Of a DNA stretch of 64,000 nucleotides, positions 14,047 to 59,841 are shown piece after piece. Origin of the DNA: Flavobacterium cyclinae (lineage in GTDB: Bacteria; Bacteroidota; Bacteroidia; Flavobacteriales; Flavobacteriaceae); the NCBI RefSeq assembly GCF_021172145.1, contig NZ_CP089095.1:2914001-2978000 (forward strand). Reading direction: 5' to 3'. The notes beneath the pieces are model-generated. The model ran no database searches and had not been told where the DNA came from. It saw only the letters and a program-made list of their open reading frames with translations. A program made the position numbers and the translations under genes. The first letter of the stretch is position 1; each line of letters opens with the position of its first letter.

Positions 14047-16317
14047 TTACTGTTTTATAATCCTAATCGTTTTGTTTAAATCTATACCTTTAAAATTTAC
14101 AATATACAACCCATTTTGTAAAGCTGTTAAATCTAATTCCTGTTGATCTAACACAGTATTAAAACTACCTTCTTTTACTTTTTGCCCTAAAGCATTGTAA
14201 ATTTCATAAGAACTTACATACTCTTTTGAAGTGATGAAAATTTTTGAAGAGGTTGGGTTTGGGTAAACAATGAAATTATTTGTGGTATCGAAAGTATCTA
14301 CGTTTAAAGCTTGTTCAATTAATTGCATACCAGCTAAAGCATCTATTTTACCATAACCCCACTTTACATTAGGTGGTGTTGAATAAGTTGTGCCGTAAAA
14401 ATTAAATGGATTTGTAACATCTGAATCTGCTATTGATGTATTGCCAATTATTCCCAGAACATTATTTGTTGTTAGTTGAGGATAAGCCTGTAGCCATAAA
14501 GCTACAATACCGCTTACAACTGGTGATGCCATTGATGTGCCATCCATTTTACCATAAAAATGAGTGCCAAAAGTATTAGTTACATCGCTAAAACCAATAC
14601 CGCCAGATTGATAAGTAGTATCAAAAGAACTTAATGACGATACAATTCTATTACCAGGCGCGGTAACATTAGGCTTAATTAAAAAATCTGTACGAGGTCC
14701 TTTGCTAGAAAATGTTGACAATGTTCCTTCATTTCCTGGATATGGTTCTGAATTCAATACTTCAATAGGATTATATGACCCAACTGCTACTGCACCATTT
14801 GCACTCGCGGGTGAACCAATAGTAAAAAAATCATCTCCATTTATGAATTGATTCTGCCCATAGTTTTCAAAATTACAGTTAGAACACCAAGAATGTAATA
14901 GGTTATTGTTACTTTCAAAACCAATAACTAATTTATCCCATTGGTCAGTATTGTTTGTAGCTGCTGTAATTCTTAAGTTTAACTTATTGTTTAGTGAATT
15001 TAATGAACTAACTAGATTAATACTAAAGATATCTCCATTCGAATCAATTAAATCATCTGTAAATTGTGCACTACCATTAACTGTCCCCGAAATAGTAGTT
15101 GAACTAACAACAGTATTTGAAACTAAATTGTAAACCGCTATTTCAATTTCAAAAGTCCCATTTGTACCTAAATTTTGTGACCAAATATCCACCTCTGAAA
15201 AGTTATCTGGAGTTGGTTGATTATTGACAACAGGTTGCATATCATCAATTATGATAAAATTAGTATCATTTAAACCAAAATCCATAACTGCGTGTTTTTT
15301 CTGACCTCCATCGTTTCCTGCGGCAGCAACTAATACAAGACTAGGCGTGTTTGATAAATTATTTATTGCTTCCTCCTCGAGAGTTGTGCCGTCATGAGGA
15401 CCAAGACCCGTTCCAAAACTCATATTTATAACTACTGGCTTATTAACAGAATTTGCATAATTTTTTATATAATTAATTGCATCAATATATGTAAAATTAA
15501 TAGATGTTGACGAATAACCTTGAGTAGGACGAAAACCACTAACCAAAACTATTTCAGTGTTTGGAGCCATTCCTTTTAGCAAACTTAAATTACCTGTTCC
15601 TGTACCTGCCGCTGTACCTGCTACATGTGTACCATGTGATTGATTAATAGTATCATACTGCTTATTTAATATTGCAGTAGCACCAACATATTCTGAACCA
15701 TATGTGAAACCCAGGTTACTTGGAGGTGTTCCTGAAGTATTACTTCTTTCCCATACTCTTGAAATTCTTAAATTTCCATTTATATCTTTAAAATTTGGGT
15801 GTGTATAATCGAAACCTGCGTCTATAATACCAACAATAACTCCAGTCCCAGTGTAGGCTTGACTAATTCCAGTACCCATATGAACGGAGTTAGTATTAGT
15901 TGTATTTCTAGCGTTATTTACTTCTAATTCTAATTTTTCTCCAATATCAGCATATTTTATACATTGTATGCTTTCTAGAAGAGGTAAATCTTGTACTTTA
16001 ACAAAAGCTGTTGAAATATTATCTGATATTTTAGAAATATCTGAGAAAATATTTGAGCTATTAAAATTTGTACAATCATCTTCTAACAATAAAGTTATTC
16101 TAGATAAACTATTTAAGTTAATTTGTGTCAAATTATTCTCTTTATTTTGCTTAGCGTTTAAATACAACATATTTGTCGCTGGTGATAATTTTGTAGCTTC
16201 TGAAGTGGTTTCAAATTTAATAGTACTATGATTTCCTTTAAAGATATTTTGAGAAAACAAATTAATGCTTAATAAAAGTAATAATAGGTTAATTAATGTA
16301 GTAGTTTTATTTTTCAT
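14047..16317 (-). CDS. secreted S8 (subtilisin-like) serine protease with T9SS signal
   Basis: This 756-residue secreted peptidase has a signal peptide (about 1-22), a pro-region, and an S8 catalytic domain with Asp166 (GIIDAGFD), His228 (SHGTHVAG) and Ser593 (GTSMASP). An insert of roughly 200 residues lies before the Ser, including a Cys-rich WCSNC stretch. The last 75 or so residues (NFIVYPNPTSSKIFI to TIRIIKQ) form a type A T9SS C-terminal sorting domain, so it should be exported across the outer membrane and attached or released there. Its substrate is unknown. PorZ, a T9SS component, is encoded at 50333-52621. Confidence 0.9.
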   Translation of the reverse strand: MKNKTTTLINLLLLLLSINLFSQNIFKGNHSTIKFETTSEATKLSPATNMLYLNAKQNKENNLTQINLNSLSRITLLLEDDCTNFNSSNIFSDISKISDNISTAFVKVQDLPLLESIQCIKYADIGEKLELEVNNARNTTNTNSVHMGTGISQAYTGTGVIVGIIDAGFDYTHPNFKDINGNLRISRVWERSNTSGTPPSNLGFTYGSEYVGATAILNKQYDTINQSHGTHVAGTAAGTGTGNLSLLKGMAPNTEIVLVSGFRPTQGYSSTSINFTYIDAINYIKNYANSVNKPVVINMSFGTGLGPHDGTTLEEEAINNLSNTPSLVLVAAAGNDGGQKKHAVMDFGLNDTNFIIIDDMQPVVNNQPTPDNFSEVDIWSQNLGTNGTFEIEIAVYNLVSNTVVSSTTISGTVNGSAQFTDDLIDSNGDIFSINLVSSLNSLNNKLNLRITAATNNTDQWDKLVIGFESNNNLLHSWCSNCNFENYGQNQFINGDDFFTIGSPASANGAVAVGSYNPIEVLNSEPYPGNEGTLSTFSSKGPRTDFLIKPNVTAPGNRIVSSLSSFDTTYQSGGIGFSDVTNTFGTHFYGKMDGTSMASPVVSGIVALWLQAYPQLTTNNVLGIIGNTSIADSDVTNPFNFYGTTYSTPPNVKWGYGKIDALAGMQLIEQALNVDTFDTTNNFIVYPNPTSSKIFITSKEYVSSYEIYNALGQKVKEGSFNTVLDQQELDLTALQNGLYIVNFKGIDLNKTIRIIKQ

Positions 16318-16359
16318 GTGCGTAAAAATATATTTCTCTGTCTCAAGAGGATTAAATTT

Positions 16360-16530
16360 TGTAAAAAACTAAAAGCGTGAGACAAACTCCAATCTGCGCC
16401 TCAGGTATCGCCAAACACCCACACTACAAGAAAAGAGAAGCCCACGCCAGTGACGTGAGCGTTCGCATATTAATCTTGTAGTGTATTTGAATGGCGATTT
16501 CGAGACACTAATTAACAGCTACGCTATTAG
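16360..16530. repeat. structured intergenic element with long inverted repeat
   Basis: Arms at 16407-16431 and 16474-16498 (ATCGCCA...CACTACAAGA against TCTTGTAGTG...TGGCGAT) match at 18 of 25 positions. Inside is a small hairpin CACG/CGTG (16443-16457). Outside is AACAGC-TAC-GCTATT (16514-16528). Local base composition is clearly richer in G and C than the genes beside it. No protein is encoded. It resembles the recombination or repeat end of an inserted cassette, but no integrase is nearby. Confidence 0.5.
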
Positions 16531-16540
16531 TTATATGTAA

Positions 16541-17035
16541 TTATTTTTTTATTTCATATTGAATATTTATGTAAATATTGTATAATTTTTCTTTCATATT
16601 ATTCAATTGATTTATTTTATAATTATATTCATTATCTTGAATTATTTTTACAAATCCTTGATTATTGTAACTTTTTGAACTATGTATTTTTGTTATTTCA
16701 AAACCCTTTATAAGATTATGCTTTTTGGGAACAAAATACGAGTGTGCAAAATCATTTCTCAAATTATTTAAGTTTACAAATTCACTAAATATTTCATCTT
16801 TTTGAATTTGCATTTTTTCTAAAACCAATAAAAACTCTTGAAATAACCTCGGTCTGCTCAAACCCATTAATAAAGTTGTAGTAAACTCCATTTTCTCGTC
16901 ATTGTTTTCACAAAAATATGATGATATTATATATGACATCAACGTTTCTACATAAGCAAAAGTAGTTAAATATTCATAATGAGCTTCTTTAAATTTTTGT
17001 TCGTTAATTACAAAGTTATTCATCTTTCCTAACAT
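16541..17035 (-). CDS. HEPN-like protein, possible RNase toxin
   Basis: I do not recognise the exact family. The protein is alpha-helical by composition and carries LRNDFAHSY, which fits the HEPN ribonuclease motif Rx4-6H (Arg93 and His98 from this start). The frame extends to a TTG at 17053, but ATGs at 17035 and 17023 are more likely starts. It follows the 95-residue gene on the same strand, so the two probably form one unit. HEPN proteins often act as RNA-cutting toxins in defence or toxin-antitoxin systems. That role is inference here. Codon use is very AT-rich. Confidence 0.55.
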   Translation of the reverse strand: MLGKMNNFVINEQKFKEAHYEYLTTFAYVETLMSYIISSYFCENNDEKMEFTTTLLMGLSRPRLFQEFLLVLEKMQIQKDEIFSEFVNLNNLRNDFAHSYFVPKKHNLIKGFEITKIHSSKSYNNQGFVKIIQDNEYNYKINQLNNMKEKLYNIYINIQYEIKK

Positions 17036-17059
17036 ACTTTCATTTATTAACAATAAAAT

Positions 17060-17347
17060 TTAATTAGTAGTCATAACAGATTTTAGTTCTAAAATACATC
17101 TTTCAGATTCTATTTTAATCACTAAAAAAACTAAAGCTTTTATTAATTTATCTCCATATTCGACAATTGAAATTGTAATTTCATCATTTTCTGTAGAATC
17201 ATTTTTTTTTAACCATACTTCAATGTTCTTGTCTAATCGATTTTTATCCTTTAAATAAAATTGTTCAACATAATCTGATGTTGATAATTCTATCTCTTTG
17301 AGAGATGGAGAATTCTTATAATTTTTAAAATCTATAGTAATTATCAT
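17060..17347 (-). CDS. hypothetical protein, partner of the HEPN-like gene
   Basis: This 95-residue protein has no motif I recognise. It is rich in charged residues and alternates polar and hydrophobic positions, with no signal peptide or membrane segment. Its stop codon lies 24 bp before the ATG of the HEPN-like gene, and both share one AT-rich upstream region (17348-17445) in which no TAnnTTTG box is visible. The position is that of an antitoxin or accessory subunit, but nothing in the sequence proves that. Confidence 0.5.
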   Translation of the reverse strand: MIITIDFKNYKNSPSLKEIELSTSDYVEQFYLKDKNRLDKNIEVWLKKNDSTENDEITISIVEYGDKLIKALVFLVIKIESERCILELKSVMTTN

Positions 17348-17439
17348 TTATATTTGTTTGGTTTATAAAAATAAAAAATCTTTTTAAATAAACTTAAAAT
17401 ATTTAATAAAAAACTTTAAATAATAAAAATAAAACATAG

Positions 17440-17517
17440 AAAATTCTACAACAACTTCCCTTCTTCTCTTTCGTAAAACTCGTCAATAGATAAGTTGGTT
17501 TGTTGCGATGCCATAAC
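17440..17517 (-). pseudogene. stray copy of the rnhA 3' end
   Basis: This 78-bp stretch aligns without gaps to the end of rnhA at 18833-18910 with 67 identical bases. It would encode MASQQTNLSIDEFYEREEGKLL and a stop, against MASQQEKLSVDEFYEREEGKLL in rnhA. Several differences are synonymous, so it was once under protein selection. It lies beyond the DUF4143 gene, so that gene and its repeat array are flanked by direct copies of the rnhA end. Confidence 0.85.
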
Positions 17518-17537
17518 AAACTCTTATTTCTAATGAA

Positions 17538-18695
17538 TTATAAATTTATTTCTTTCCAACTCATAATCTTTCCCAAAGTTCTCTCTTGATTAAATAATCC
17601 TGTATGAACCACTGATTTAGTTTTGATCAGTTCAGGTTTTAGTTTTTCAAAATAACTTAATCCTTTGAACATTTCGGGCATTATGGTTTCTGATGCTTTA
17701 ATTTCTACTAAATTTAAAAGCTCGGAGTTTTGCCATATTAAATCTACTTCATGTCCTTCTGCATCGCGCCAAAACCATAAATCTAAAAGTAAATTGTTGT
17801 GATAGTTTATTTTTAGATATTCATTTATAACATAATTTTCAAACAAACTCCCTTTTAAAGAACTTAATTTTACACTTTCTGCTTCATTTAATTTTAGCAA
17901 ATAACACAATAAACCTGTATCGTAAAAATATAATTTTGAGCTTTTGGTAACACGTTTGTTGAAATTTGAAAAATAAGGTTGTAATTGATATACTATATAA
18001 CTACTTTCTAAAACCGAAACCCATGATTTAGCAGTAGGTTGTGAAATTCCACATTCATTTGCCAATGAATTTAGATTGAGCAATTGACCTGCTCTTGCCG
18101 CACATAGTGAAATAAAATTTCTAAATTGCTTTAAATCTTTTACATGAATGAGTTCCGACAAATCACGTTCAACATACGTTTGTATATAATTAGAATAAAA
18201 AACTTTTGATGGAATATCTCTATCATAGATTGCAGGATAAAATCCTTTTTGAAGATTAACGGCATAATCCTCATTTAACCAATTAGCAGCGTCCATTTCT
18301 GAAACATCAAATGGCAACAATTTAAATAAAGCAACTCTCCCCGCTAAACTTTGAGTAATATTTTGCATTAAATGAAAATTCTGAGAACCAGACAAAATGT
18401 ATTGTCCCATAATTTTATCTTCATCTACTTTTGTTTGCAAATAAGAAAACAACTGAGGAACACGTTGTGCTTCATCAAAAATCACATACTTACCGTATTG
18501 TTTTAAAAATCCGTTTGGATCATCTTCAGCAAATTTTCTGACATCTAAATTTTCTAAATTCACATACTCATAATCCGAAAAATGAGTTTTTAAAAAGGTG
18601 GTTTTGCCAGATTGCCGCGGACCTGTTAAAGCTAAAATAGGATATTTATTTTTATAAACATCCATTTGCGATTTAATTGCTCTATTTGCACTCAT
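17538..18695 (-). CDS. AAA+ ATPase with DUF4143 domain
   Basis: This ATP-binding protein of the AAA_14 + DUF4143 type has 385 residues from the ATG at 18695. Walker A is GPRQSGKT (25-32), Walker B is YVIFDEAQ, and the C-terminal half ends in a restriction-endonuclease-like segment (EVDLIW then LVEIKAS). The frame extends to a TTG at 18716, but that codon lies inside the -7 motif TATATTTG (18714-18721). ATG 18704 or 18695 is therefore the real start. The cellular role of the family is poorly known, and it is patchily distributed and often transferred. The gene sits between a 23-bp repeat array and a duplicated rnhA end. Confidence 0.85.
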   Translation of the reverse strand: MSANRAIKSQMDVYKNKYPILALTGPRQSGKTTFLKTHFSDYEYVNLENLDVRKFAEDDPNGFLKQYGKYVIFDEAQRVPQLFSYLQTKVDEDKIMGQYILSGSQNFHLMQNITQSLAGRVALFKLLPFDVSEMDAANWLNEDYAVNLQKGFYPAIYDRDIPSKVFYSNYIQTYVERDLSELIHVKDLKQFRNFISLCAARAGQLLNLNSLANECGISQPTAKSWVSVLESSYIVYQLQPYFSNFNKRVTKSSKLYFYDTGLLCYLLKLNEAESVKLSSLKGSLFENYVINEYLKINYHNNLLLDLWFWRDAEGHEVDLIWQNSELLNLVEIKASETIMPEMFKGLSYFEKLKPELIKTKSVVHTGLFNQERTLGKIMSWKEINL

Positions 18696-18713
18696 AATTA
18701 ACATTTTAAAGTA

Positions 18714-18721
18714 CAAATATA
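18714..18721 (-). promoter_or_regulatory. -7 promoter motif for the DUF4143 gene
   Basis: TATATTTG on the minus strand, 10 bp before the ATG at 18704. The 23-bp repeats start 7 bp further upstream, over the expected -33 region. Confidence 0.65.
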
Positions 18722-18727
18722 GAACTT

Positions 18728-18833
18728 ATTTTGAAAAAGAATATATTTTAATTTTGAAAATGCAGATACTTGTATTTTGAAAATGTAGGTGTTTTTATTT
18801 TGAAAATGCAGGTATTTGTATTTTGAAAATACA
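18728..18833. repeat. 23-bp tandem repeat array
   Basis: Units begin at 18728, 18751, 18774, 18797 and 18820, exactly 23 bp apart; the last is partial. Each starts with ATTTTGAAAA, and four of the five complete the near-palindrome ATTTTGAAAAT. The other 12 bp vary around TGCAGGTATTTGT. The array fills the space between the rnhA stop and the DUF4143 promoter and looks like a set of operator or iteron sites. Confidence 0.85.
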
Positions 18834-18838
18834 AAATC

Positions 18839-19318
18839 CTACAATAACTTCCCTTCTTCCCTTTCGTAAAACTCATCAACAGACAACTTTTCTTGTTGCG
18901 AAGCCATAACCGCCAATTCATCACAACGTTCGTTTTGTGGATGATTGTTATGACCTTTAATCCATTGAAAATCGACTTGGTGTTTGCGATACACTTTTAA
19001 GAAACGCATCCATAAATCGGGATTTTTTTTGGCTTTGAAGTTGATTTTTTCCCACTGAAATACCCATCGTTTTTCCACAGCATCCACCACATATTTAGAA
19101 TCGGAAACCACTAAAACTTTGGTTTTTGGGTTTTTTAATTTTTCTAACCCTACGATTACCGCTAACAATTCCATTCTATTATTGGTTGACAATCTAAAAC
19201 CTTCGTAAAATTCTTTTTTGTAAGGTGTTCCTACCATTTCCATCACCACGCCATAGCCAGCCGGTCCAGGATTTCCCTTCGCAGCACCGTCTGTGTATAT
19301 GTGGACTTCGTGACTCAA
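18839..19318 (-). CDS. rnhA: ribonuclease HI
   Basis: This 159-residue enzyme cuts the RNA strand of RNA-DNA hybrids. The catalytic DEDD set is Asp10 (YTDGAA), Glu50 (NNRMELLA), Asp73 (SDSKYV) and Asp133 (ERCDELA), with His123 in KGHNNHP. The length is normal. The gene begins 11 bp after purN on the same strand, so the two are probably cotranscribed. Its last 70 or so bases occur again at 17440-17517. Confidence 0.95.
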   Translation of the reverse strand: MSHEVHIYTDGAAKGNPGPAGYGVVMEMVGTPYKKEFYEGFRLSTNNRMELLAVIVGLEKLKNPKTKVLVVSDSKYVVDAVEKRWVFQWEKINFKAKKNPDLWMRFLKVYRKHQVDFQWIKGHNNHPQNERCDELAVMASQQEKLSVDEFYEREEGKLL

Positions 19319-59727: not shown

Positions 59728-59754
59728 AAAGTATAGCACAAAGTAGCACAAAAA

Positions 59755-59841
59755 CTTCGTGAAACTCTGTGTAAAACTTCGTGAAACTCTGTGTAAAACT
59801 TCGTGAAACTCTGTGTAAAACTTCGTGAAACTCTGTGTAAC
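59755..59841. repeat. four tandem 22-bp repeats upstream of nadD
   Basis: CTTCGTGAAACTCTGTGTAAAA starts at 59755, 59777, 59799 and 59821, identical except for the last unit end. The array stops 3 bp before the nadD ATG, so it forms part or all of its 5' leader. Copy number could vary by slippage. Confidence 0.9.

What the first reader, a model, noticed from the sequence alone, without database searches (positions are those of the whole stretch)
17440..18910. DUF4143 ATPase gene inserted between two copies of the rnhA 3' end
The last 78 bp of the rnhA region (18833-18910) recur at 17440-17517 with 67 identities and no gaps. The reading frame is kept to the stop codon, and several changes are synonymous. 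The DUF4143 gene and its 23-bp repeat array lie exactly between the two copies. This is the footprint of an element that enters at the end of a gene and restores that end with its own copy, or of allelic exchange with a diverged donor. No integrase or transposase is present.
Basis: partly seen in the sequence, partly recalled or inferred. Interest (0 to 1): 0.75.

Follow-up and report, generated by a model that had tools for sequence, protein, structure and literature searches.

The report
Mobile ATPase gene capped by borrowed gene-ends
A common single gene of unknown purpose, listed as a candidate anti-virus defence gene, sits in this bacterium between a working housekeeping gene that seems to have received a foreign tail and the old tail it displaced, and some of its relatives show the same kind of scar at other genes, so it looks like a gene that moves by replacing gene ends.

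Summary
In detail: 67 of 78 bases of the rnhA 3' end recur beyond a DUF4143 gene and its 23-bp array. Two close relatives have the empty rnhA-pfkB site. The same DUF4143 clade sits at this boundary in other species, twice more with its own rnhA-tail duplication. Duplications of 50 nt or more border 21 of 150 DUF4143 ORFs against 1 of 156 other ORFs; within the genus 14 of 80 against 1 of 82 Fic, AAA_21 and HipA loci. YhcG loci give 4 of 28, Mrr 1 of 27. The window's ghost tail is slightly nearer to another species (65 of 72) than to its own intact tail (62 of 72).

Best reading: insertion with long target duplication, as reported for restriction-modification genes. Incoming DNA recombined inside rnhA, brought its own rnhA end plus DUF4143, and joined within the native tail, which stays as a ghost. 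The protein matches PADLOC's PDC-S01, a frequent defence candidate; validation is said to be pending for most such candidates. Its model is AAA+ plus a PD-(D/E)XK-like domain. Whether it drives insertion is open.

The parts
18839..19318 (-). rnhA (ribonuclease HI), intact reading frame
   Evidence: Pfam RNase_H E=3.7e-35; NCBIfam ribonuclease HI 163 bits, cut-off 160
18826..18910 (-). 3' end of rnhA now in use, plus 13 nt beyond the stop; read here as the incoming copy
   Evidence: 85-nt repeat; in the last 72 nt it differs from three sister species at 9-11 sites while the sisters differ from each other at 3-5
18727..18830 (.). array of 4.5 units of 23 bp directly upstream of the DUF4143 gene; read here as an operator
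   Evidence: TRF; related arrays after rnhA in L050, L052, L054, L055, L140 and L046
17538..18716 (-). DUF4143/AAA_14 gene: AAA+ ATPase, helical middle part, PD-(D/E)XK-like C-terminal domain; PADLOC PDC-S01
   Evidence: Pfam, PADLOC E=1.7e-97, models with mean pLDDT 93.1, structure comparisons
17433..17517 (-). ghost copy of the rnhA 3' end, stop codon kept; read here as the displaced native tail
   Evidence: 85-nt repeat; nearest of the rnhA tails held is G276 (L269) 65 of 72, own intact tail 62 of 72
14047..17347 (-). second inserted block: ORF95 (17060-17347), ORF170 (16541-17053), subtilase with sorting domain (14047-16317), between the ghost and the pfkB promoter
   Evidence: ORFs, Pfam; absent from the rnhA-pfkB gap of L021 and L022
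12996..13928 (-). pfkB-family kinase, the other side of the boundary; a sister-type promoter lies directly upstream of it
   Evidence: Pfam PfkB E=3.5e-33; sequences of L021 and L022 compared by eye

Best explanation
The DUF4143 gene with its promoter and array entered the rnhA-pfkB boundary by insertion with long target duplication. Step 1 (inferred): DNA from a close relative that already carried rnhA linked to DUF4143 entered the cell. Step 2 (supported by the tail comparison, few bases): it recombined by homology inside rnhA, so the working rnhA received the donor's 3' end. Step 3 (structure shown, mechanism inferred): the other end of the fragment was joined inside the native rnhA tail instead of by homology in the downstream gene, so the native tail stayed as an 85-nt ghost beyond DUF4143. 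Homologous exchange on both sides would leave no ghost, which could explain the many DUF4143 loci without one. DUF4143 clades keep to particular gene boundaries. The protein (AAA+ plus PD-(D/E)XK-like domain) may favour its own insertion by cutting; that is inference, and this reading does not need it.
For: Empty sites G023/L021 and G032/L022; by the DUF4143 profile G012 and G276 have no match, G023 and G032 one distant match each on another contig than rnhA. Bordering duplications 21 of 150 against 1 of 156; without seven weak or non-coding ones 14 of 150 (p=0.0003) and in the genus 11 of 80 against 1 of 82 (p=0.002). rnhA-tail duplications in L049, L052 and L139, each with its own tail type. 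uvrB tails of L094 encode the same 41 residues. Eleven pairs in recognisable genes: 82 synonymous, 54 nonsynonymous codon differences. Window ghost 65 of 72 to G276, 62 of 72 to its own intact tail, with a GAC codon shared with G276. Site follows clade in 60 loci: 11 changes, shuffled mean 42.9, 0 of 200 as low. DUF4143 DNA is more alike than every flanking gene compared in 7 of 8 pairs with the window; in L055 a partial purN is equal (84.8 against 84.5%). G026 has a solo array after rnhA and no DUF4143 match.
Against: 129 of 150 DUF4143 ORFs show no bordering duplication at this threshold. All 20 scored pairs together give 99 synonymous and 105 nonsynonymous; the 11 were chosen because their frames are recognisable genes. 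In the window alone the ratio is 5/3 and the ghost is about as far from three sisters as the intact tail, so the donor argument there rests on one further genome and 72 bases. L052's intact tail is not like that of the L139-type genomes whose DUF4143 it resembles, so the donor would be a closer relative that I did not find; transfer into G101 is itself unsure, since its pfkB is nearer L053/L054 (81-82%) than L139 (77.9%) but its purN is nearer L139 (69.9%) than L054 (67.4%), and no host tree was built. The rfbD boundary is shared by unrelated DUF4143 lineages.
Confidence: 0.7

Rival explanations
1. Passive hitchhiking: homology-facilitated illegitimate recombination inserts any accessory gene with a duplicated gene end; DUF4143 plays no part and is only common at hotspots. 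(This rival shares the junctions of the best explanation and denies only a role of the protein.)
For: The same scar is seen in 1 of 28 Fic, 1 of 27 Mrr and 4 of 28 YhcG loci. The rnhA boundary also holds a DUF6268 gene in G012, a similar gene by eye in G276 and a YhcG gene in G295. The process is described in PMC5361080 (passages read).
Against: Fic+AAA_21+HipA give 1 of 82, DUF4143 14 of 80 in the same genus, p=0.00026; against all five families together 6 of 137, p=0.0026. The families were my choice and may differ in age or mobility; against Mrr alone p=0.11, against YhcG 0.78.
Confidence: 0.45
2. Simple target duplication by an insertion enzyme, followed by drift of the ghost; no donor gene end.
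For: Window, L052, L086 and L179 have syn/nonsyn counts (5/3, 6/5, 8/7, 4/5) not far from what drift would give.
Against: L094, L139, L109, L085 and L115 have mainly synonymous differences; 82 of 136 is above 33% (p=6.5e-11) and 43% (p=3.7e-5), my rough expectations for duplication plus drift; the ghosts of the window and of L139 are slightly nearer to another species' tail than to their own (65 and 62; 66 and 65 of 72).
Confidence: 0.2
3. Old vertical inheritance: one ancestral insertion per boundary, with many losses.
For: Most boundaries' DUF4143 genes form one clade, and a solo array shows that loss happens.
Against: The ghosts of L049, L052 and L139 differ from each other (41, 50 and 50 of 72 alike) but resemble their own hosts' tails (84.7, 82.7 and 89.5%) and still read as coding, so they look young and separate.
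Confidence: 0.1

Closest known systems
Insertion with long target duplication of restriction-modification genes (Nobusato et al. 2000; seen only as citing passages in PMC3154945 and PMC1643837)
   Same: An accessory gene between two long direct copies of target sequence; the absence of a transposase there is recalled
   Different: Here a single AAA+/PD-(D/E)XK-like gene, kept to a few housekeeping boundaries by clade, and copies that differ as if from two lineages
Homology-facilitated illegitimate recombination and gene-end displacement (Vibrio T6SS effector arrays, PMC5361080, passages read)
   Same: Homology on the gene side, illegitimate joining on the other, old end left downstream
   Different: There effector/immunity modules replace one another; here an unrelated gene follows a housekeeping gene
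Free-standing homing endonucleases (recalled; papers only listed)
   Same: A nuclease-like gene beside a conserved gene, exchange of flanking sequence
   Different: No cleavage shown; not a known homing family by Pfam; ghost ends are not typical (recalled)
PDC-S01 phage defence candidate (PADLOC; PMC12988326, passages read)
   Same: The window protein matches seven PDC-S01 models, best E=1.7e-97; that paper also gives ATPase plus PD-(D/E)XK
   Different: Defence was not tested here; the paper says validation is pending for most such candidates

Membership tests
Insertion with long target duplication | Insert present in one genome, absent from relatives at the same site | tested here: met
   L021 and L022 empty
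Insertion with long target duplication | Long direct duplication of target flanking the insert | tested here: met
   85 nt, 84.7%
Insertion with long target duplication | Insert is a restriction-modification gene complex | tested here: not met
   DUF4143/AAA_14 gene, no methylase domain in it or in ORF95, ORF170, the subtilase
Homing endonuclease | Cleaves the allele that lacks the gene | not testable with these tools
   No assay
Homing endonuclease | Sits at its target and spreads with exchange of flanking sequence | tested here: inconclusive
   Site follows clade and tail comparison agree but do not prove it
Transposon or insertion sequence | Known transposase and inverted repeats at both ends | tested here: not met
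   No transposase domain in five proteins; of the 25 of 55 inverted pairs shown none has its arms at both edges of the unit
Integrase-borne island | Tyrosine or serine integrase | tested here: not met
   No integrase domain in DUF4143, ORF95, ORF170, rnhA or the subtilase; the rest of the genome was not searched for one
PDC-S01 (PADLOC) | Match to the profile | tested here: met
   E=1.7e-97
PDC-S01 (PADLOC) | Protects against phage | not tested
   No assay
AAA+ ATPase | Fold and Walker motifs | tested here: met
PD-(D/E)XK nuclease | Fold and catalytic motif | tested here: met
   C-terminal 121 residues modelled alone (pLDDT 93.1): best Foldseek matches McrBC nuclease part (E=9e-4, TM 0.49), then Hjc resolvases, R.BspD6I, Can2 at E 0.005-0.05, read as this fold from memory; E22, E52, D54, E67 invariant and K69 nearly so in 24 sequences
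PD-(D/E)XK nuclease | Nuclease activity | not tested
   No assay

The most novel reading that the evidence does not exclude
DUF4143 (PDC-S01) proteins are themselves the mobility enzymes of a large class of one-gene homing elements: each clade cuts at the end of one housekeeping gene and spreads with a diverged, uncuttable copy of that gene end as built-in rescue, a natural cleave-and-rescue system that has been counted as phage defence.
Probability: 0.2. Interest if true: 0.88.

Novelty: new variant of a known kind. Interest (0 to 1): 0.62.

Why it matters
PDC-S01 is described as the fourth most common defence across prokaryotes, and validation is said to be pending for most such candidates. 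If these genes spread by replacing gene ends at fixed boundaries, their abundance may reflect self-spread as well as, or instead of, protection. The scar gives a simple genomic test that can be run on any gene family, and displaced tails can date and polarise single transfer events. It also suggests that ends of housekeeping genes are swapped between species.

Tried and rejected
A 17-base core of the 23-bp unit, searched in the own genome with up to 2 mismatches, found 14 places and only the known array as a cluster. Close empty relatives of G101 and G028 were not found: the best rnhA-purN matches of G101 were 73-76% alike in 398 genomes, the best uvrB protein 88% in 31, so those tails could not be polarised. 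A rule that any nuclease gene does this was tested with Mrr and not borne out (1 of 27), though YhcG agreed (4 of 28). Thermus and Agrobacterium plasmids show DUF4143 within segments of 1.5-1.8 kb that recur in several contexts, but 11 such loci showed no long bordering duplication and I found no clean single empty site, so they are side evidence only. A tRNA at the Agrobacterium edge motif was not found in nine loci.

Literature: DUF4143 gave 1 paper (listing only); COG1373/PF13635/PF13173 gave 8 (listing), of which PMC10782964 lists COG1373 in a table of horizontally transferred genes of gut genomes (one passage seen), so its transfer as such is already noted in print; a search on archaeal ATPases and selfish AAA+ gave 0; one search was swamped by unrelated words; one search gave one paper, listing only. 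That the gene-end scar of DUF4143 is unreported rests on these searches of open PMC papers alone. Iyer et al. 2004 on AAA+/nuclease mobile families is recalled and was not seen.

Choices made after seeing data: the limits of the border test (50 nt, gaps 250 and 450) were set after and then used unchanged for all control families. At one search's looser limit the counts were 19 of 80 DUF4143 and 2 of 39 control ORFs;'s 17 of 70 and 14 of 152, several of the latter overlapping the DUF4143 gene. Flank rules were at least 500 bases. Only 90 of the matches were analysed, and that list was cut. The tree holds 60 of 170 loci, those sharing a neighbour with another locus; labels are mine, and the two labels L127up and L106dn partly name one region. 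Of 20 pairs scored for codon changes 11 were kept; L082 gave no frame.

Full report
What is there. On the minus strand the window reads purN, rnhA, 23-bp array, DUF4143 gene, a second copy of the rnhA end, ORF95, ORF170, a subtilase, and a pfkB-type kinase. The two rnhA ends share 67 of 78 bases; 200 random 78-mers of the window reach at most 57. The window lies in a 3.02-Mb single-contig genome with four DUF4143 matches. The genus is Flavobacterium by inference: the DUF4143 protein of G147, listed as same genus, is identical in the tree to that of F. gelidilacus.

The empty site. rnhA was found in 58 of 60 sampled genomes. In the close relatives G023 and G032 it is followed after about 80 bases by pfkB; in G012 a DUF6268 gene lies there, in G276 a gene alike by eye and other ORFs. 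By the DUF4143 profile G012 and G276 have none, G023 and G032 one distant match each on another contig. A promoter like that of the sisters is still directly before pfkB in the window, so ORF95, ORF170 and the subtilase form a second block between it and the ghost. Of 299 genomes of the genus 95 encode a relative of the DUF4143 protein; up to six of the candidates per genome were scored.

Same boundary, other species. The nearest clade has nine rows in my tree, eight distinct, L054 and L140 being identical in all genes compared. rnhA lies on the upstream side in seven of them (L049, L050, L052, L054, L055, L139, L140), an rnhA-tail fragment in L051, and pfkB on the downstream side in seven (L050-L054, L139, L140). 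In L053 only the pfkB side is adjacent: rnhA of G250 lies about 7.7 kb away. L055's contig ends after the gene. L052 and L139 carry their own rnhA-tail duplications (81 nt, 82.7%; 105 nt, 89.5%), L053 a 40-nt one on the pfkB side, under my 50-nt limit. Other clades sit at other boundaries, for example pabB-like|tilS (seven loci), der|era and rlmB (three each); gene names are my reading of translations. For 60 of 170 loci and 11 sites the tree needs 11 changes of site, the least possible being 10; near-copies and vertical descent contribute, long branches are flagged, and the rfbD site alone is shared by separate lineages. G026 keeps three array units after rnhA and has no DUF4143 match.

Are gene-end duplications linked to DUF4143? 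In 170 loci, 21 of 150 DUF4143 ORFs with enough flank have a bordering direct duplication of 50 nt or more, against 1 of 156 other ORFs of the same loci (p=2e-6). Ends of uvrB, tsf, gmd, rfbD, rsmA, rlmB, an HD-domain gene and others are affected, on either side of DUF4143 (my reading). Seven of the 21 (L082, L090, L112, L167, L194, L214, L216) are weak or non-coding, and L142's gene was not recognised; without the seven the count is 14 of 150, p=0.0003. Family controls in the same genus with the same limits: Fic 1 of 28, AAA_21 0 of 28, HipA_C 0 of 26, Mrr_cat 1 of 27, YhcG 4 of 28. DUF4143 (14 of 80 in the genus) stands out against the three non-nuclease families (1 of 82, p=0.00026) and all five together (6 of 137, p=0.0026); YhcG stands with it, Mrr cannot be told apart from either (p=0.11 against DUF4143).

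Where the copies come from. If an enzyme had merely duplicated its target and the ghost then drifted, roughly 33 to 43% of codon differences should be synonymous (my estimate). In the 11 pairs in recognisable genes 82 of 136 are; all 20 scored pairs give 99 of 204. The uvrB tails of L094 encode the same 41 residues with synonymous differences only. The window's ghost is nearest to the rnhA tail of G276 (65 of 72; 51 of the last 52 by eye), sharing a GAC codon that the intact tail lacks; its own intact tail gives 62 of 72. The intact tail differs from three sisters at 9, 10 and 11 of 72 sites, the sisters among themselves at 3, 3 and 5; in the other 408 bases the counts are 32-42 and 32-40. The ghost is about equally far from these sisters. 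This fits an imported tail and a native ghost but rests on few bases.

Nested case. In G295 the order is rnhA, YhcG gene, rnhA-tail fragment, array, DUF4143, pfkB; the tail plus the first bases after it, where the array starts, are duplicated around YhcG (114 of 125 bases). A later insert thus seems to have come in next to rnhA and pushed the earlier tail and DUF4143 downstream.

Mobility elsewhere. In Agrobacterium plasmids DNA segments of 1.5-1.6 kb with DUF4143 as the only long gene recur at 95-99% in different contexts, in Thermus a 1782-base segment at 99.1%. This supports movement as a unit but not by the same junctions.

Verdict. The scar is real, not chance, recurs with the gene family, and is best read as insertion with long target duplication by import of a donor gene end. 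Whether DUF4143 causes it is the open and testable point.

Noticed in passing
L340:2765, L341:2765 and 4250, L342:406 and 2000, L348:2001 and 3484: In Rhizobiaceae plasmids a 23-bp motif near GGTTCGATTCCC(A/T)TCAAGGCGAA borders DUF4143 units and lies between two Fic genes in L342; a blastn with a composed 34-base query met 288 plasmid records, most of the 25 rows shown outside annotated genes. It looks like a cassette boundary; the recombinase is unknown.
   Followed up: partly
L046 (G026), directly after the rnhA stop: Solo 23-bp array of three units with no DUF4143 match in the genome: probably a remnant of a lost unit.
   Followed up: partly
L358 2628-4677: YhcG/DUF1016 nuclease gene nested at the rnhA end with a 125-nt duplication that includes the start of the DUF4143 array.
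   Followed up: partly
L360, L372, L381, L386, L298, L409: Bordering duplications around YhcG (four), Fic (one, 149 nt) and Mrr (one, 202 nt) loci.
   Followed up: no
L062 1433-1465 / 2625-2657; L166 1720-1760 / 2938-2978: A palindrome lies at both ends of the DUF4143 gene as direct copies (93.9% and 92.7% alike), as if marking the unit's ends.
   Followed up: no
L354 2880 / L356 2501 / L357 2880: In Thermus plasmids a sharp edge lies about 98 bases before the DUF4143 start codon in different contexts.
   Followed up: no
window 59751-59840: About four perfect copies of a 22-bp tandem repeat AAAACTTCGTGAAACTCTGTGT.
   Followed up: no
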